Of a stretch of DNA of 29,680 nucleotides, positions 2,579 through 10,167 are shown in pieces (within the stretch, counting starts at the first letter, position 1; every line of letters begins with the position of its first letter). The stretch comes from a virus. The stretch lies in the IMG/VR virus record IMGVR_UViG_3300021960_000348, positions 1 to 29,680 of that record, one strand, 5' to 3'. Position numbers and translations under genes: made by a program. The notes below the pieces were generated by a model. That model had not been told where the DNA came from and did not search any database. It saw only the letters and a program-made list of their open reading frames with translations.

Positions 2579-4452
2579 TGGTAGATGATAAAGTAGGTAT
2601 CAAGGAATATCTTGGTATAAAAATTAATTACAGTAATGAAAAACTATTAGATAAGTTTAGCCTTGACACACTCAAGGATAGATACTTATGGGAGAATGAA
2701 ACACATGCACAAGAAGCGTTTGCCAGAGCATCAGTCTTCGGAGCAACCTACAAAGGTCACACAGATTTTGAGTTGGCTCAAAGACTTTATCACTACAGTT
2801 CCTCTTGTTGGTTCATGTTTAGCACTCCTATACTTAGTAACGGGGGAACAAGTCGTGGTCTTCCTATTAGCTGTTTCCTCAATTATGTATCTGCTCACTA
2901 TGACGAGAATATTTGGTTGGCAAGTTCGGGTGGAGGTATTGGTGGATTTTGGGGAGATATTAGGAGTAATGGTATTTCTACTACTCACGGTAGTAAGTCT
3001 ACTGGTTCAATCCCTTTCATGCATGTTGTAGATTCTCAGATGTTAGCCTTCAATCAAGGCACAACAAGACGTGGTTCTTATGCTGCTTACATGGACATAT
3101 CTCATCCGGAGATTGAAGAGTTCATTAACATGCGGAAAGAATCTGGTGGTGATATCAACAGGAAGAATCTTAATCTTCATAATGGTATCAACATTACCAA
3201 TGAGTTTCTCAAAGCTGTACAAGAAGATGCAGACTTTAGATTGATTGACCCTAAGACTCACGAACCTACAAAGATTGTAAATGCTAGAGACTTGTGGTGG
3301 CAAATCATTAATGCTAGAGCAGAGACAGGTGAGCCATACATGGTTAATATAGATACATGTAACGAAGCATTACCTAAAGAACAAAAAGATTTAGGATTAG
3401 AAATCAGACAGAGCAATCTATGTTCTGAGATTACTTTACCTACTAACGAAGAACGAACAGCAGTGTGTTGTTTATCTTCTGTAAACTTAGAATACTTTGA
3501 TGAGTGGAGTGAGAACCCTTTGTTCATTGATGATTTAATTACTATGCTTGACAATGTATTACAACATTACATTGATAACGCTGTTGATACAAATAACTTA
3601 GGAGAATACAATGCAAATTTTAAAAGGTTTCAAAAACATATTAAGCCGGGCAAAGAAGGGTTTCTTAAATCTGCCTACTCAGCTTATCGAGAAAGGTCGT
3701 TGGGTTTGGGTGCGATGGGATTCCATTCGTATCTCCAATCACGCAGCATTCCTTTTGAGGGTATCTTCGCTACGGGCTTTAATTACAAAGCATTTAAACA
3801 CATTAAGAGACATTCGCTTAGAGCAACTGAACGACTTGCTGATGAACGTGGTGAGTCACCTGATGTCAGTGGTAGTGGTAGGCGTAATGCTCATCTACTC
3901 GCTGTTGCTCCTAATGCTTCTTCTAGTATCATATGTGGTGGGACATCTCCTTCGATTGAGCCATACAGGGCTAATGTTTATACGCACAAAACTCTCTCAG
4001 GCTCGTTCCAAGTTAAGAACAAATACCTAGAAGAAATTCTAAAGGATAAAGGATTAAAGAAAGATGAGCTTACTGCTTTATGGAAAGACATTGCAGGTAA
4101 CGAGGGTTCAGTACAGCACCTTGATATTCTTACAGATGATGAAAAAGAAATATTCAAGACTGCTAATGAGATAGATCAGATATGGATTATAGAACACGCT
4201 GCTAAACGACAAGAGTTTATTTGTCAAGCACAATCAGTTAATCTTTTCTTTACTATACCTACAGCTACAGAGCCACAGGAAGTACACGATGAGTACATGC
4301 AATACGTCAATGATGTGCACTGGTATGGTATGAACAAACTTAAATCTTTATATTACTTTAGAACTAATGCTGCTCGTAATGCAGAGAACGTAAACACTAA
4401 AGTACAACGTATTAAATTAGACGATGCTGAATGTATCGCATGTGAGGGATAA
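2578..4452 (+). CDS. nrdA: Ribonucleotide reductase class I, alpha (large) subunit
   Basis: The protein reduces ribonucleotides to deoxyribonucleotides with the NrdB radical subunit. Catalytic residues can be placed against E. coli NrdA: C99 in GLPISCFL for C225, N280/C282/E284 in SNLCSEI for N437/C439/E441, C297 in AVCCLS for C462, the radical-transfer pair Y592-Y593 in SLYYFRT for Y730-Y731, and a C-terminal redox pair C619-x-x-C622 at the very tail. At 624 aa it is shorter than E. coli NrdA (761). The catalytic fold begins almost at once, so the N-terminal ATP-cone that lets dATP shut the enzyme off appears to be missing. The start ATG overlaps the preceding stop by one base. Two small ORFs separate it from nrdB. 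Confidence 0.97.
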   Translation: MVDDKVGIKEYLGIKINYSNEKLLDKFSLDTLKDRYLWENETHAQEAFARASVFGATYKGHTDFELAQRLYHYSSSCWFMFSTPILSNGGTSRGLPISCFLNYVSAHYDENIWLASSGGGIGGFWGDIRSNGISTTHGSKSTGSIPFMHVVDSQMLAFNQGTTRRGSYAAYMDISHPEIEEFINMRKESGGDINRKNLNLHNGINITNEFLKAVQEDADFRLIDPKTHEPTKIVNARDLWWQIINARAETGEPYMVNIDTCNEALPKEQKDLGLEIRQSNLCSEITLPTNEERTAVCCLSSVNLEYFDEWSENPLFIDDLITMLDNVLQHYIDNAVDTNNLGEYNANFKRFQKHIKPGKEGFLKSAYSAYRERSLGLGAMGFHSYLQSRSIPFEGIFATGFNYKAFKHIKRHSLRATERLADERGESPDVSGSGRRNAHLLAVAPNASSSIICGGTSPSIEPYRANVYTHKTLSGSFQVKNKYLEEILKDKGLKKDELTALWKDIAGNEGSVQHLDILTDDEKEIFKTANEIDQIWIIEHAAKRQEFICQAQSVNLFFTIPTATEPQEVHDEYMQYVNDVHWYGMNKLKSLYYFRTNAARNAENVNTKVQRIKLDDAECIACEG

Positions 4453-5969: not shown

Positions 5970-6326
5970 CTATCCTGCTAAAGGATTCTTATTCTCTTCT
6001 TTAAATATTTTTATATCAGTCTTAACACTTTCGATATCAGCTTTCATGCCTGACATATCAGACCTAATAGACTCGAGGTTATTAATCTTAAGTAAGATAG
6101 TTTCATCAATAGTTTTATTAATATATTCTACTGAAGTTTCTAACGCTTCAATTCTATTGATAACCTCATCCACTCCTTGCTCAGTTTCTTTAGCTTGTTG
6201 AGCTTTTGATTCTAAGTTTTCAATCCTATTTACATAGGTTGCCCCAGTATATCCAAATCCGGCTAGTGTTCCTATAATACCAGCTAGTGCAATAAACTGT
6301 GTTGTTTTATTTTGTAACCAATCCAT
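5970..6326 (-). CDS. Membrane-anchored coiled-coil protein (118 aa)
   Basis: The protein has one N-terminal membrane segment (about residues 10-32, FIALAGIIGTLAGFGYTGATYV). The rest is an amphipathic coiled coil with hydrophobic heptads (VNRIENLESKA, INRIEALETSVEY). The layout suggests a single-pass inner-membrane protein with a long helical domain on one side. It resembles some phage spanin or lysis-accessory proteins in shape, but I see no lipobox or other diagnostic motif. An AGGAGA ribosome site lies before the ATG and overlaps the end of the upstream secreted-protein gene. It is the last gene of the minus-strand arm. A similar layout recurs in the 81-aa protein at 21759-22004. Function unknown; the membrane call is confident. 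Confidence 0.78.
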   Translation of the reverse strand: MDWLQNKTTQFIALAGIIGTLAGFGYTGATYVNRIENLESKAQQAKETEQGVDEVINRIEALETSVEYINKTIDETILLKINNLESIRSDMSGMKADIESVKTDIKIFKEENKNPLAG

Positions 6327-6335
6327 AATGTTCTC

Positions 6336-8300
6336 CTATAATTTTGGTTGTAGTTCTCTCATTTCAATCAGTGTTTCTAAACTCTGACCTGCCATTTGAT
6401 AAAAGCCTTCGATGTTATCTGACAACATATTGTTGGCATAAATATCTGTCGACTCGTACCATGTTTCTTGATCGGGTAATGTCACTAACCTATAGTTATT
6501 AAAGTTAGGAACAAATCCCATGTAAGCTATAATAGTATTCTCTGACCCATACTCACCGGTCTCTTCTTGTTTAGCTTCAACATCATCTTGTGCATCTTGT
6601 AAGTTCTGGGCTATGACATTGGCTACAGTTTGTTCAGCTTCTGTGGCTGATGCATCTGTAGAGACTGACACATCTATTTGACTTTGTAAAGTTTGAGTAG
6701 TTGTTGTATCAACTGCGACACTCGTTGTCTCAACTGTCTCAGCTTCAACACTTGTAGAGCTTGTAACACTAGCACTCATATCTAACACTTGATTGTTTTG
6801 TGCAGTAGAAGATGCAAATTGTTCTGATATACTAGGTGAGTTACTAGTACTTACACCCCCACCAGAATTAGACGATGATACGCTAGAAGCTCCTGTCGTT
6901 CCACCTGTAGCGTGTATAGAGTTTCCTGATGTAGTTCCACTAACACTAGACTTAGCTGTGCTTAGAGTAGAGGAGACAACACGTAACGCTGTTTCTTTAC
7001 TTATTGAACTTTCACTTTCTGAAACTTCAGCAACCAGTTCTTCTTCTATCTCTTCTTCTATAACCTCATCTTCTTCTTCAACCAGCTCCTCAATAAGCTC
7101 TTCTTCCGGCTCTTCTGCATACGCAAGTTCTTCTTCCATTGTTGTCTCTTCCTCAAACCACTCCTCCACTTCTTCAATAAATGTTTCTTGAAATACAAAC
7201 TCCTCAATCATCAACTCTTCAATCGGTATAAAGGCTTCTTCTTCACGCATAAACGGAAGAGGTTCTACAAATTCTTCAAGTGGTTGTAGCTGTTCAAAGA
7301 TTATATCTTCTTCAAATACAAACTCAGGCTCTTCAAAGATGTCATACTCAGGTTCAAAGATGTACTCTTCAAAGATTTCTGGCTCTTCAAAAGTGTCATA
7401 CATGTCATACTCTTCGTAACCATAGTCAAATAGTTCTTCTTCATATCCGTAGTCAAAGTATTCTTCTTCTTGATAGTATCCTATATCTTCTTCTTGTCGA
7501 TAGCCTTGACAAAATGGTCCATACTGTGGGTCTAGGTCACATTGAAAATCATCATAGGCTTCCCAGTACCCTGCACAGCTTACATCATTTAAAGGATTAC
7601 TACAGTCAATGGTCTCGCTTGTACCATACAACGAACCACCAGCTTCTAATAAAGTATTTGATGTAGTGCTGTTCCAGTCCTTACTTACACAAGAGCTAGT
7701 ATTGGTTGTTCCTGTATTACATTCATCGTGAAACAAGTATTGATAGTAAGTATCTGAATCTTTCTGTTGTCCAATAAGAACATCGTGCTGTATAATATTT
7801 AAGTCACCATACCTAAAATCAAAAGTAGAGTTAGTCCAAAGTATTACTTCAAAACTGTTATCAGTATTACTACGATTATACTCACGCATGTCGTACCAAC
7901 CAAAGACTGTCTTATCACTAAAGTTCTTGGCTAACATTTTAGAGTTGTTATCTCTTATCAAGTCAGTCCAGAACGGAAACAGTGTGTAGTTGTATTGTGG
8001 TAGTGGGTCAGGTGTGTAATCACCACAGTAATTATTATAGTTTACATTGCCTGTACCTAACCCAAAGTGAAGACAACCATTCGTAGCCATACGAGCAGAT
8101 GTAAATTGTTTATCGTAAAAAATAAATGTAAAATCTAAATTAAAAGCAGACGAAAGCTGGTCGTCTCCTGAGTTTAGACTGGTTGTATTTGATTCGTTTG
8201 TAAGGTCTACTAAAGACTGATTGCCTTCGTAGATATACTGACTAAAGACATTAAGACTTAAGAGACACGCTACTGCGTAGCATAGAATTCTTTTCTGCAT
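6336..8300 (-). CDS. Secreted NIDO-like protein with acidic low-complexity region
   Basis: This 654-aa protein is of unknown function. It has a signal peptide (KRILCYAVACLLSLNVFS, residues 3-20), rare for a phage product. Residues about 45-190 look like a nidogen/NIDO-type beta domain as seen in adhesins: FNLDFTFIFYDKQF, ATNGCLHFG, LFPFWTDL and FEVILWTN. Cysteine-bearing segments follow (C194, C204, C233, C242, C254, C264). Residues about 269-425 are extremely rich in Glu, Tyr, Phe and Asp with short repeats (DYGYEEE, FEEPE). A Ser/Thr/Val stretch to about 570 and a final globular part (GFVPNFNNYRL...) complete it. The ATG lies 31 bases inside the preceding gene, so the two are coupled. Candidate roles are surface or envelope modification of the infected cell, superinfection exclusion, or a particle-decorating adhesin. 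None is shown. Confidence 0.8.
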   Translation of the reverse strand: MQKRILCYAVACLLSLNVFSQYIYEGNQSLVDLTNESNTTSLNSGDDQLSSAFNLDFTFIFYDKQFTSARMATNGCLHFGLGTGNVNYNNYCGDYTPDPLPQYNYTLFPFWTDLIRDNNSKMLAKNFSDKTVFGWYDMREYNRSNTDNSFEVILWTNSTFDFRYGDLNIIQHDVLIGQQKDSDTYYQYLFHDECNTGTTNTSSCVSKDWNSTTSNTLLEAGGSLYGTSETIDCSNPLNDVSCAGYWEAYDDFQCDLDPQYGPFCQGYRQEEDIGYYQEEEYFDYGYEEELFDYGYEEYDMYDTFEEPEIFEEYIFEPEYDIFEEPEFVFEEDIIFEQLQPLEEFVEPLPFMREEEAFIPIEELMIEEFVFQETFIEEVEEWFEEETTMEEELAYAEEPEEELIEELVEEEDEVIEEEIEEELVAEVSESESSISKETALRVVSSTLSTAKSSVSGTTSGNSIHATGGTTGASSVSSSNSGGGVSTSNSPSISEQFASSTAQNNQVLDMSASVTSSTSVEAETVETTSVAVDTTTTQTLQSQIDVSVSTDASATEAEQTVANVIAQNLQDAQDDVEAKQEETGEYGSENTIIAYMGFVPNFNNYRLVTLPDQETWYESTDIYANNMLSDNIEGFYQMAGQSLETLIEMRELQPKL

Positions 8301-9349
8301 TGCCTTTTTGTTTTAGTTTTAGTTGTATAAATAACTTTGACTGCCCCAACAACATCTTTGTTTATCTTGTCTCTGTTAGGATTTCTGTCGTGTGTGCATT
8401 GCTGTATAAAAAGTTTTTCTTGTTCTTTAGCATCAGGTCTTTTAGATTTGTTTTCTGCCCAAGCTTTAGTTGCTTCTTTACCTATCTGACCTTGATAAGG
8501 GCAAGGAGTACCAGCCATTTCCATAGCCTTAAATACTCTTGGGTCTTGACAAAGTATAGATACTGAAGCCACTTTCATACCGGTATCGTACAGATACTTG
8601 GAAAGTTTTAAGCGTTCACAGTTCTCGTCAGTCACAGTAGCTCCTGTAGAGAACCCAAATACTTGCCCTTGAAAGGCACCAGAACGACCTACAGTACAGA
8701 GGTCTTGAGAGTAAGACATAATACTAGGTGCTATAGCAGAAGCAGGAGGTGCTTTGCTTTTTACGTTCTGATTAATAGTCTGAGTAGAGTTAGACTCGTT
8801 AATATTTCTATTAGTATTATCAGACTTTGTATTGTTATTATTGGTATTAGTATTGTCAGTAGTAACATTAGAATCTGAAGTCGATGTATTAACGTTAGTA
8901 TTGTTATTAGTATTTGTATTATTACTAGTAGAATTACTGTTGTTATTTACGTTCTGATTGACTGTAGAGTTTACAGTAGAGTTAGATGTAGACGTAGAAG
9001 TATTAACGTTGTTGTTATTGTTTGTATTTGTTGAAGTGTTATTTGATGTCGAGGTATTTACGTTAGTATTATTTGAAGTATTAACATTAGTATTATTATT
9101 AGTGTTAGTATTTACATTTGTATTGTTATTAGTATTGGTGTTTGTATTGGTATTACTATTCGTATTATTGTTGGTGTTGGTATTAGTAGTCACTGTAGTA
9201 TTAATGGTAGTTAATCCATTGTCTTCACAATACTGTGTACCCGAAGTACAGTCGCCTGTTTGGTCTGAACTTACAGCAAATGACATTGTTAATAAACCTA
9301 ATATAAATAATGGTCCAAAAAATCCTCTATTTAAATCACCTCTTGACAC
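8270..9349 (-). CDS. Secreted Asn/Thr-repeat protein with Cys-rich C-terminal domain
   Basis: This 359-aa protein is of unknown function. A hydrophobic N-terminal segment (FFGPLFILGLLTMSFAVSS, residues 10-28) looks like a signal peptide or anchor. Residues about 47-196 are almost only Asn, Thr, Ser and Val in alternating N-T pairs, likely a flexible linker or stalk. Residues about 200-359 form a compact domain with six cysteines (C218, C244, C267, C283, C318, C351), consistent with disulfides in the periplasm or outside. It includes the segments FQGQVFGFSTG, YDTGMKVASVS and TPCPYQGQIG. The start is GTG, supported by a TAGGAGATAAA ribosome site just before it that overlaps the upstream gene's stop. 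Its 3' end overlaps the NIDO-like gene by 31 bases, so the pair is probably co-translated. Confidence 0.8.
   Translation of the reverse strand: MSRGDLNRGFFGPLFILGLLTMSFAVSSDQTGDCTSGTQYCEDNGLTTINTTVTTNTNTNNNTNSNTNTNTNTNNNTNVNTNTNNNTNVNTSNNTNVNTSTSNNTSTNTNNNNNVNTSTSTSNSTVNSTVNQNVNNNSNSTSNNTNTNNNTNVNTSTSDSNVTTDNTNTNNNNTKSDNTNRNINESNSTQTINQNVKSKAPPASAIAPSIMSYSQDLCTVGRSGAFQGQVFGFSTGATVTDENCERLKLSKYLYDTGMKVASVSILCQDPRVFKAMEMAGTPCPYQGQIGKEATKAWAENKSKRPDAKEQEKLFIQQCTHDRNPNRDKINKDVVGAVKVIYTTKTKTKRQCRKEFYATQ
8762..9211 (-). repeat. Asn/Thr low-complexity coding repeat
   Basis: About 150 codons inside the secreted protein alternate mostly between Asn (AAT/AAC) and Thr (ACT/ACA/ACC), with interspersed Ser and Val. 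The DNA is a degenerate tandem repeat of about 6 bases read in frame. Such tracts expand and contract by slippage and unequal recombination, so length probably varies between related phages. There is no exact long repeat, and synonymous codons are mixed, which suggests selection on the protein composition rather than very recent expansion. Confidence 0.85.
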
Positions 9350-9357
9350 TTTATCTC

Positions 9358-9723
9358 CTATTTAGTTTTTGATGTTGATGTATATAATCCAAACCATGCA
9401 GCACCTGCTCCGACTACTACTGATATGAACCCTGATTGTTCCATTGTTGGGTCACTAATTTCCATAAACCAAAACGTGGTATAGTATAATAAGAACATAT
9501 ACACACTTAAAAAAGCTCTAGGTATTATTCTCCAACTATCCACAGCTTGTGCTACAAATATTAATTTTTGATAAGGGTTATCGTTCTTGATATCCTCTAA
9601 CTCTCTTATCCTATCTTTAAGTGCTGACTTTTCTTGCAGCAACTCCATAAACTTATTAAGGTCAATCTCTACCTCATTTCTATCCATGTCGCCACTGAAG
9701 CCACCCATATTATTCTGTTGCAT
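9358..9723 (-). CDS. Small membrane protein, holin candidate (121 aa)
   Basis: The protein has a polar N-terminus with a predicted coiled coil (FMELLQEKSALKDRIRELEDI, residues about 25-45). Two hydrophobic segments follow, about residues 68-88 (AFLSVYMFLLYYTTFWFM) and 97-113 (FISVVVGAGAAWFGLY), and a short basic tail (STSKTK). Two to three membrane helices next to a second small membrane protein, downstream of internal virion genes, is where podoviruses often keep holins. The family is not recognised, so the lysis role is inference from shape and position. The ATG has an AGAGGG ribosome site upstream. Confidence 0.75.
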   Translation of the reverse strand: MQQNNMGGFSGDMDRNEVEIDLNKFMELLQEKSALKDRIRELEDIKNDNPYQKLIFVAQAVDSWRIIPRAFLSVYMFLLYYTTFWFMEISDPTMEQSGFISVVVGAGAAWFGLYTSTSKTK

Positions 9724-9732
9724 AATGCCCTC

Positions 9733-10167
9733 TTATTTTTTAACTAGGCTGCCACCAAAGTACATACCTATGATTGCTGATACAAGGTTTGTATCTAATT
9801 GTGTTATTACCAAGCCTTGAAAAGTTATCCATTCAAATACTTCTCTACCATCTGAAAAGAATAAAAAGCCCGGTTGAAATAATGTATATCCTACTGTTAC
9901 ATCTACACTCGGATAATATACTGCTACCAGTTTAGGTAGTATAACAATTGCAAAGATAGATGATAACGCAATGATACGTCTTGTCCATTGGAATCCTTTA
10001 TCTTGTACGTTACGTGCAGACTCTACAGCTTTAAGTTGAAACTCACCTCTTGTAATCAACATCTTTTGCTCATCTTGTTTAGCCTTCATACGTTGAGACC
10101 ACAGACTTAACACACTACTCAATAGAGTAGAACCTAACATAGTTATAATTTCAAATGGGAACATCAT
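9733..10167 (-). CDS. Small membrane protein, holin-like (144 aa)
   Basis: Three hydrophobic stretches are visible: the N-terminus (FEIITMLGSTLLSSVLSLW, residues 5-23), the middle (IIALSSIFAIVILPKLVAVYY, about 65-85) and the C-terminus (NLVSAIIGMYFGGSLVKK). A charged helix (SQRMKAKQDEQKML) lies between the first two. The ending pattern of a glycine-bearing helix plus basic tail resembles three-helix phage holins such as those of gene-transfer-agent type. I cannot confirm homology. AGAGG precedes the start and there are two consecutive ATG codons. The gene overlaps its upstream neighbour by 17 bases. Together with the 121-aa gene it forms a candidate lysis pair. Confidence 0.75.
   Translation of the reverse strand: MMFPFEIITMLGSTLLSSVLSLWSQRMKAKQDEQKMLITRGEFQLKAVESARNVQDKGFQWTRRIIALSSIFAIVILPKLVAVYYPSVDVTVGYTLFQPGFLFFSDGREVFEWITFQGLVITQLDTNLVSAIIGMYFGGSLVKK

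What the first reader, a model, noticed from the sequence alone, without database searches (positions are those of the whole stretch)
6336..9349. Pair of secreted low-complexity proteins next to the lysis region
Two adjacent overlapping genes both carry N-terminal export signals and unusual composition: one NIDO-like with a long acidic Glu/Tyr/Phe tract, the other an Asn/Thr alternating repeat with a six-cysteine C-terminal domain. Phages rarely encode exported proteins. A coupled pair suggests one unit, for example cell-surface modification, superinfection exclusion, aggregation of debris, or a late particle-associated layer. No such system is known to me.
Basis: partly seen in the sequence, partly recalled or inferred. 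Interest (0 to 1): 0.75.

Follow-up and report, generated by a model that had tools for sequence, protein, structure and literature searches.

The report
Exported envelope gene module of marine phages
Many unrelated ocean viruses that infect bacteria share a small, undescribed set of genes for proteins that appear to be sent out of the infected cell's cytoplasm into its envelope; it probably alters or breaks that envelope, but its role is untested.

Summary
P0002 ("A", 8270-9349, minus) and P0001 ("B", 6336-8300) overlap by 31 nt. Both start with export-signal-like N-termini, and in fetched relatives A is followed by B in 135 of 135 non-edge cases (98 distinct pairs). Next comes C (5970-6326): membrane helix, coiled coil, tail "NPL". 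A-B-C recurs in very different pelagiphages, a 328-kb virus and roseophages; in roseophages a lipoprotein homologous to A's core overlaps the start of A in 63 of 63 loci tested. A matches only phrog_20531 (unknown function); B and C match no family of known function convincingly.

Best reading: a Sec-exported, trans-envelope complex, probably made late (C in the inner membrane, A and B in the periplasm, a lipoprotein in some phages). It most likely helps to breach the outer membrane, as spanins do. Superinfection exclusion or surface binding is nearly as likely: B's N-terminal domain can be swapped between close relatives, some modules lie far from lysis genes, and an A-like gene lies away from the structural genes in Achromobacter phages. 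Export was judged by a home-made rule; function is untested. The NIDO label is weak.

The parts
8270..9349 (-). Gene A (P0002, 359 aa): signal-peptide-like N-terminus, Asn/Thr tract (aa 48-196), then a domain with six Cys, four of them general (aa ~221-320 confidently modelled; beta hairpin plus helices). GTG start with AGGAG 5 nt upstream.
   Evidence: phrog_20531, E 7.5e-14; AlphaFold2
6336..8300 (-). Gene B (P0001, 654 aa): signal-peptide-like N-terminus, beta-rich domain (aa ~22-273, variable between relatives), low-confidence stretch 274-553 (Glu-rich to about 450, then Ser/Thr-rich), conserved helical C-terminal segment. Overlaps A by 31 nt.
   Evidence: (AlphaFold2)
5970..6326 (-). Gene C (118 aa): N-terminal membrane helix, coiled-coil-like stretch, C-terminal tail NPLAG; starts 9 nt after B, AGGAG upstream.
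9358..9723 (-). Upstream protein with hydrophobic segments (121 aa; phrog_10198, unknown function), next to A in the window clade; part of the neighbourhood, not shown to belong to the module.
9733..10167 (-). Upstream protein (144 aa; phrog_38283, unknown function), holin-like by eye; a protein that resembles it by eye lies directly before A in S28-C10. Not shown to belong to the module.

Best explanation
A, B and C are a phage-made module of the host cell envelope. SHOWN by sequence: A and B carry Sec-type N-terminal signals (by rule) and no later membrane segment; C has an N-terminal membrane helix, a coiled-coil-like stretch of variable length and a strongly conserved NPL tail; the genes travel together; in roseophages a lipoprotein homologous to A's core is added. 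INFERRED: C sits in the inner membrane with its coiled coil in the periplasm; its NPL tail docks onto A and/or B; the long low-complexity stretches of A and B act as flexible tethers; the Cys form disulphides in the periplasm; the complex bridges inner membrane, wall and outer membrane; it is made late. MOST LIKELY ROLE: it helps to breach or loosen the outer membrane so that virions get out, that is, it works like a spanin with different parts. The structural reading (exported trans-envelope module) I hold at about 0.8; the confidence given is for the whole statement, lysis role included.
For: Co-occurrence A-B 135 of 135 non-edge (98 distinct pairs). A short ORF with an NP[LM] tail within 4.5 kb downstream of 107 of 115 distinct A outside the window clade, against 22 of 257 control stretches and 18 of 2,418 background short ORFs. 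141 of 141 distinct C (chosen by the tail) have an N-terminal membrane helix, N flank more positive (+0.59) than C flank (-0.33), which suggests N-in/C-out. Lipoprotein A' overlaps A in 63 of 63 roseophage-type loci tested and is homologous to the SAR11-type A domain (94.7% probability, E 5.6e-8). A lipobox scan found no ORF in the window, HTVC202P or 50 of 53 kb of HTVC033P, two without a Shine-Dalgarno site in S28-C10, and in 50 of 58 kb of CRP-810 one with such a site (this is A') and one without; so no clear separate o-spanin was seen. Endolysin PHROGs occur among genes just downstream of C (phrog_894 in 5 of 73 neighbours from 29 loci, other endolysin families in 1-2 each, overlapping). 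HTVC023P has a peptidase M15 directly after C; HTVC033P a lysozyme and a holin-like (by eye) gene within 1.3 kb before A. In S28-C10 the module sits between tail-fibre and terminase genes, where T7 keeps its lysis genes (T7 order recalled).
Against: Not always beside lysis genes: CRP-810, HTVC202P; in Mosig it lies by primase and reductase genes. Pelagiphages without a detectable A infect the same host strain (HTVC022P and HTVC033P, both on HTCC1062), so it is not needed for lysis in general. The SAR11-type versions scanned lack a clear lipoprotein, so the outer-membrane anchor of a spanin is missing there. B's N-terminal domain can be exchanged between close relatives (L084: A domain 96%, B N-domain 52%, B C-terminal part 98%), odd for a lysis protein. 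In Achromobacter phages an A-like gene lies away from the structural genes. No expression, localisation or virion data. HTVC033P-type B has no significant profile match to the window's B C-terminal part.
Confidence: 0.38

Rival explanations
1. Superinfection exclusion or receptor masking: the infected cell carries A and B in or on its outer membrane, B's swappable lectin-like domain covers the surface sugar or protein that competing phages (or the phage's own progeny) use, and C anchors the complex.
For: B's N-terminal domain tends to be the variable part (72 locus pairs with A domain at least 85% identical to the window: median identity 0.69 for B's N-domain, 0.85 for its C-terminal part; L084 0.96/0.52/0.98 for A domain, N-domain, C-terminal part). 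The module is accessory and occurs in unrelated phages. Achromobacter phages keep an A-like gene outside the structural region. Annotators called two B proteins carbohydrate-binding. A' is a lipoprotein, as are some known exclusion proteins (recalled).
Against: The N-domain is not always the faster part (L044: 0.90 against 0.75 for the C-terminal part; L096: 0.58 and 0.59). In several marine phages the genes are on the strand of the structural genes; exclusion proteins are usually early (recalled). The only outer-membrane exporter looked for, CsgG, was matched in 0 of 14 records, so A and B may stay in the periplasm. No lectin family was confirmed.
Confidence: 0.3
2. Adhesive or debris-binding layer: A and B are released at lysis or reach the surface and aggregate cells, debris or virions, much as curli have been proposed to do in other pelagiphages ('sibling capture').
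For: The Asn/Thr tract is long, patterned and constrained; pelagiphages are already known to carry curli genes, with aggregation proposed (PMC9599517, PMC7029224; passages read).
Against: AlphaFold2 gives the tract no structure (pLDDT under 50), which does not exclude an amyloid; no curlin match in the Pfam scans of A; no CsgG in 14 records; in the isolates printed the tract is short; C with its membrane anchor and tail has no role in this reading.
Confidence: 0.15
3. Virion-associated proteins: A, B and C are parts of the particle (a decoration, an ejection or a tail-associated layer).
For: The genes share the strand of structural genes in HTVC033P and CRP-810; in the window they follow a 1,723-aa gene with endolysin and virion-protein PHROG matches.
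Against: Sec-type signals on A and B, a membrane helix on C and a lipoprotein in roseophages would take them out of the cytoplasm where particles assemble.
Confidence: 0.08

Closest known systems
Two-component spanins (lambda Rz/Rz1; overview PMC6139136, passages and section 15 read)
   Same: One protein with an N-terminal membrane helix and a coiled-coil-like part (C), and in roseophages a lipoprotein (A'); overlapping genes; near lysis genes in some phages.
   Different: Two further large exported proteins (A, B); no clear lipoprotein in the SAR11-phage versions scanned; not always near holin and endolysin; no sequence match beyond coiled-coil noise (C to phrog_739 'Rz-like spanin', E 2e-4).
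Pelagiphage curli / type VIII secretion clusters (PMC9599517, PMC7029224; passages read)
   Same: Multi-gene set for exported proteins carried by SAR11 phages of different families.
   Different: CsgG matched in 0 of 14 records that carry this module; no curlin match found in A.
phrog_20531 (unknown function)
   Same: A matches it (E 7.5e-14), as do A of HTVC033P (1.9e-11), CRP-810 (3.8e-10) and the A-like protein of Achromobacter phage phiAxp-2 (1.4e-5).
   Different: It is a family without function, and covers A only.
Superinfection-exclusion envelope proteins (for example T5 Llp, Cor; recalled)
   Same: Phage proteins exported to the host envelope; small lipoprotein in one version.
   Different: Those are single small proteins (recalled); no direct comparison was made.
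NIDO / nidogen-like domain (PF06119)
   Same: Two collinear partial matches in B's N-terminal domain; beta-rich model.
   Different: Far below the curated cut-off; 2 of 42 relatives match, best E 0.093.

Membership tests
Two-component spanin | i-spanin: N-in type II membrane protein with periplasmic coiled coil | tested here: inconclusive
   C: membrane helix in 141 of 141 distinct C, flank charges +0.59 / -0.33; coiled-coil-like alignments. C were chosen by their tail; topology is only suggested, coils were not scored.
Two-component spanin | o-spanin: outer-membrane lipoprotein, in the window's phage | tested here: not met
   No lipobox ORF in the 29,680-base window. The window is a fragment of the phage genome, so one elsewhere is possible; other SAR11-type genomes: none in HTVC202P and 50 of 53 kb of HTVC033P, two without Shine-Dalgarno in S28-C10.
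Two-component spanin | o-spanin: outer-membrane lipoprotein, in the roseophage version | tested here: met
   Lipobox ORF overlapping gene A in 63 of 63 roseophage-type loci tested (closely related loci, so not independent). Sorting to the outer membrane is inferred.
Two-component spanin | gene linked to holin/endolysin | tested here: inconclusive
   Yes in HTVC033P, HTVC023P; no in CRP-810, HTVC202P.
Two-component spanin | needed for outer-membrane disruption | not testable with these tools
   needs lysis experiments
Curli / type VIII secretion | CsgG outer-membrane channel | tested here: not met
   0 of 14 records with a match at E <= 0.1; control: 4 of 14 known genomes match. Five of the 14 are virus contigs, the window among them, that may be fragments; nine named phage records were searched whole.
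Curli / type VIII secretion | curlin repeats in the exported fibre protein | tested here: inconclusive
   No curlin family among Pfam matches of the window's A (E <= 0.1) or of A from HTVC033P, Mosig, CRP-810 (E <= 1); hmmscan filters can lose weak repeats.
NIDO domain (PF06119) | score over the curated cut-off (25 bits) | tested here: not met
   best 12 bits in the window; 0 of 8 records over the cut-off
phrog_20531 | profile match of A | tested here: met
   E 7.5e-14 (the stretch also covers Asn/Thr residues), 1.9e-11 and 3.8e-10 for A without a long tract
Superinfection-exclusion protein | blocks a second phage at the envelope | not testable with these tools
   needs infection experiments

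The most novel reading that the evidence does not exclude
A new kind of phage-built envelope machine, not a spanin: a flexible, disulphide-bonded protein with an Asn/Thr- or Ser-rich arm (A, or its lipoprotein form A'), a host-matched, swappable sugar-binding protein on a Glu-rich tether (B) and an inner-membrane coiled coil with an NPL docking tail (C), apparently handed between unrelated phages of SAR11, roseobacters and perhaps other hosts to control the surface of the infected cell.
Probability: 0.33. Interest if true: 0.85.

Novelty: new variant of a known kind. Interest (0 to 1): 0.68.

Why it matters
SAR11 and roseobacters are among the commonest bacteria of the sea. How their phages get through the outer membrane, or guard an infected cell, is largely unknown to me; in one survey about 13% of the phages analysed had no recognisable spanin, marine cyanophages among them (PMC6139136, section 15).

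Tried and rejected
Curli: rejected (no CsgG match in 14 records; no curlin match).

Anti-phage defence genes: PADLOC hits of C look like coiled-coil noise (best E 7e-5); none for A or B.

Pfam labels for B: NIDO, 'Rv2525c glycoside hydrolase' (11 of 42 relatives, best E 0.0017) and CPW_WPC (20 of 42, best E 0.0082) are weak; the window's own matches are below the cut-offs.

Known folds: Foldseek and VIA-align gave no convincing PDB match for A or B; much of both models is low-confidence, so this shows little. In BFVD, A met viral proteins without a function (9 at E <= 0.001), with phiAxp-2 next at 6.8e-3; B was not searched in BFVD. PDB sequence search with profiles: none for A, one chance match (E 0.055) for B.

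Essentiality from a sample chosen without A (read): 3 of 10 loci carry A; of the 7 without, only 3 (L362, L365, L366) have 2 kb or more beyond the match, and the query gene is itself mosaic. Inconclusive.

Timing: the transcriptome paper PMC12753301 (abstract and section 12 read) covers HTVC022P and HTVC027P; neither appeared in my A searches, so it gives no timing for this module.

Homology of HTVC033P-type B to the window's B C-terminal part: not supported (1.5% probability); HTVC115P/L181/L175/L174-type is (95.3%, E 2.3e-8).

PMC5037462 (phiAxp-2): one query failed for too many terms and was not repeated; I saw only its search listing with the start of the abstract.
Full report
WHAT IS THERE. 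The window is a 29,680-base virus record. On the minus strand two genes overlap by 31 nt: A (8270-9349, 359 aa, GTG start with AGGAG just upstream) and B (6336-8300, 654 aa). Nine bases after B comes C (5970-6326, 118 aa). Two small proteins precede A (9358-9723 and 9733-10167; phrog_10198 and phrog_38283, both unknown function), and before these lies a 1,723-aa gene matching 'endolysin' and 'virion structural protein' PHROGs. A ribonucleotide reductase beta gene lies beyond C on the other strand.

IS IT MORE THAN CHANCE. A: residues 48-196 are 65 Asn and 42 Thr of 149; Asn-x-Asn spacing exceeds all 2,000 shuffles (41 against 27.7 +/- 3.0, maximum 37), while the plain Asn/non-Asn alternation count (90) stays within the shuffles' maximum (93). 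The tract is under strong protein-level constraint: pooled dN/dS about 0.055, against 0.107 in the Cys domain, from the window's A compared with same-length A proteins (12 distinct; only those 80-99.5% identical in DNA entered the pool). B: residues 268-450 hold 65 Glu of 183; for B too few same-length relatives were left (one) to judge constraint. Signals: a home-made rule (positive n-region, 10-residue hydrophobic core, small-x-small site, no later membrane segment) is met by 79 of 87 representative A and 38 of 41 representative B, against 13 of 406 and 19 of 339 background ORFs. A looser rule was unspecific (85 of 87 and 40 of 41, but 256 of 600 background ORFs), and a rule that also required a Shine-Dalgarno site was met by only 49 of 87 and 7 of 41. 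In other clades 69 of 94 distinct genes in the B position meet the rule, and 8 loci have no ORF of 150 aa there; of the 8 misses printed, 6 look like signals without a positive n-region and one is probably a spurious ORF.

THE UNIT IS A-B-C. In the loci fetched by A or B from viral contigs (L001-L152; some contigs were fetched twice), A is followed by B in 135 of 135 non-edge cases (7 edges), that is 98 distinct A/B pairs with 83 distinct A. From B's side 135 of 150 B entries have A upstream, 10 are at edges and 5 are pieces of broken B frames in three loci. C follows B directly in 101 of 125 non-edge entries (once on the other strand, L049); of the 24 others I inspected 10: 7 have one or two inserted genes and then C, one has a cut C right after a broken B, and two contigs end within the insert. 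Outside the window clade, C-like ORFs with an N-P-[LM] tail lie within 4.5 kb downstream of 107 of 115 distinct A with 3 kb of room (annotated phages 10 of 11; genome collection 8 of 12; SAR11-type 41 of 41; roseophage-type 48 of 51), against 22 of 257 control stretches; among background short ORFs the tail occurs in 18 of 2,418. Loci without C: L154, L165, L169, L170, L175, L333-L336. The three C groups aligned differ widely in sequence and length, yet all end in NPL or NPM. All 141 distinct C, chosen by that tail, have an N-terminal membrane helix.

WHERE IT OCCURS. tblastn with A finds 11 of 50,697 phage records: six Pelagibacter phages (HTVC115P, HTVC202P, HTVC033P, HTVC023P, Baldr and Mosig), two Roseobacter phages, an uncultured Votkovvirus (S28-C10) and two Manatee Spring phages. 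These are very different phages: S28-C10 is an autographivirus, Mosig a 141-kb member of Kyanoviridae, HTVC202P has a tape measure gene. B finds none, I think because it diverges faster. Twenty-one loci come from genome bins of assorted organisms; I take them for phage contigs, untested. Gene order A - B - C holds in HTVC202P, HTVC033P, Mosig, S28-C10 and, with a different B, CRP-207 and CRP-810; Baldr has a small gene between A and B, HTVC023P one between B and C, and HTVC115P has after B a coiled-coil protein without the tail. No trees were built, so transfer between phages is inferred from this spread.

A HIDDEN FOURTH GENE IN ROSEOPHAGES. A lipobox scan of the window, of HTVC202P and S28-C10 whole and of 50 kb each of HTVC033P and CRP-810 found one Shine-Dalgarno-preceded lipoprotein ORF, in CRP-810, overlapping the start of A; three hits lacked such a site (two in S28-C10, one in CRP-810). 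With a somewhat laxer rule the same arrangement is present in 63 of 63 roseophage-type A loci tested (related loci, 72-99% identical to the query); counts in other groups were 2 of 117 (window clade), 9 of 64 (SAR11-type), 1 of 15 (genome bins) and 3 of 11 (annotated phages); of those printed, some are unrelated proteins and one (L235) is A itself with a lipobox. This lipoprotein (A') is homologous to the core of A: 9 of 10 match an A profile that includes roseophage A at 17.7-31.0 bits, and profile-profile comparison with SAR11-type A alone gives 94.7% probability, E 5.6e-8. So the A fold exists both as a soluble exported protein and as a lipoprotein, which points to the outer membrane or its inner face.

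DOMAINS. A: AlphaFold2 (80 sequences) leaves the tract unstructured and models residues ~221-320 with confidence, a beta hairpin and helices. B (42 sequences): residues 22-273 form a beta-rich domain, 274-553 are low confidence, then helices, mostly of low confidence. PDB searches were empty or weak for both. B's C-terminal segment is homologous between the window type and the HTVC115P/L181/L175/L174 type (95.3%, E 2.3e-8), but not demonstrably to the HTVC033P type (1.5%), so 'B' is partly a position, not one family. B's N-terminal domain tends to be the labile part: in 72 pairs with A domain at least 85% identical to the window's, median identity is 0.69 for B's N-domain and 0.85 for its C-terminal part; in L084 the three values are 0.96, 0.52 and 0.98, which looks like a domain swap, but in L044 the N-domain (0.90) is closer than the C-terminal part (0.75) and in L096 they are equal (0.58, 0.59).

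RESULTS AGAINST A PURE LYSIS ROLE. The holin and GH108 genes of CRP-810 lie about 23 kb from the module and the peptidase M15 of HTVC202P about 19 kb (about 10 kb on a circular map); Mosig's module is by primase and reductase genes. Pelagiphages HTVC200P, HTVC022P and Bylgja gave no A in my tblastn searches and carry other small genes at that place. In Achromobacter phages (5 records, 4 phages) an A-like protein (phrog_20531 E 1.4e-5) stands, in phiAxp-2, beside another exported-looking, Gly/Ser-rich protein, away from the structural genes and on the other strand. In vB_Ade_ART two adjacent genes are annotated as similar to two consecutively numbered proteins, which I take for that pair (unchecked), one gene before DNA polymerase genes; AXY1 has a gene of similar size before its A-like gene, not compared; phage 2-1 was not looked at. 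Among 74 of the upstream neighbours the commonest PHROGs include virion proteins, 'ferredoxin' and DNA polymerase; among 73 downstream neighbours, endolysins and terminases; each list shows only the first 25 families.

HOW IT MOST LIKELY WORKS. Shown: export-type signals (by rule), membrane helix and NPL tail on C, strict co-occurrence, homologous lipoprotein in one lineage. Inferred: C in the inner membrane, A and B (and A') in the periplasm, NPL tail as docking peptide, low-complexity stretches as tethers, late synthesis (from gene position only). The role I think most likely is help in opening the outer membrane (0.38 for the whole statement); superinfection exclusion or receptor masking is close behind (0.3).

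COMPARISON WITH WHAT IS KNOWN. It works like a two-component spanin in topology, most clearly in roseophages, but no lipoprotein was found in the window, so it is not filed as a spanin. It is not the curli system described in pelagiphages (CsgG in 0 of 14 records). I found no description of this module in eight searches of the open-access library; subscription papers and supplements were not searched. Papers: passages of PMC6811365, PMC9599517, PMC9038755, PMC6139136 (plus its section 15), PMC7029224, PMC11288001; abstract and section 12 of PMC12753301; PMC5037462 only in a search listing.

CAVEATS. Loci were found through A or B and are the best 80 of each scan; ORFs were called mechanically; start codons, and so signals, are uncertain for some; loci overlap between scans. 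Names such as holin-like for 9733-10167 are by eye.

Noticed in passing
L006, L014, L031, L044, L065, L105, L118, between B and C: In part of the window clade a ~137-aa protein that looks like an IscU/NifU iron-sulphur scaffold (recognised by eye, not tested), mostly with a ~66-aa membrane protein before it, is inserted between B and C.
   Followed up: partly
L049:10145-10510: C lies on the opposite strand, convergent with B, so C need not be co-transcribed with A and B.
   Followed up: partly
window:10302-15473 (minus): A 1,723-aa gene matches endolysin and virion-structural PHROGs and seems mosaic: of 10 relatives found with its C-terminal part, 5 match only the first 305 residues of the query, and none of those 5 showed A.
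   Followed up: partly
CRP-810 gp51 and gp53 (L156:9162-9584, 7776-8531); Manatee Spring podophage L160:8239-9345; S28-C10 L163:9698-9922: Members of the module are annotated as 'lysozyme', 'OmpA family protein', 'transport protein tonB' and 'DUF2730'; these names look wrong or uninformative.
   Followed up: partly
L351:3217-3711 and 2599-3156 (Achromobacter phage phiAxp-2): An A-like exported protein stands beside an exported-looking Gly/Ser/Asn-rich protein; the A-like gene recurs in Achromobacter phages of about 62 to 95 kb.
   Followed up: partly
L158:10367-11020 and other neighbours: Several neighbours of the module match phrog_3704 'ferredoxin' (5 of 74 upstream, 2 of 73 downstream); its link to the module is unexplained.
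   Followed up: no
L346:6212-6571, L347:6013-6372, L154:10917-11279: A second kind of membrane-helix plus coiled-coil protein without the NPL tail (phrog_20984, unknown function, for L346; the others by eye) stands near TerL in pelagiphages lacking A, and a similar protein follows B in HTVC115P.
   Followed up: partly
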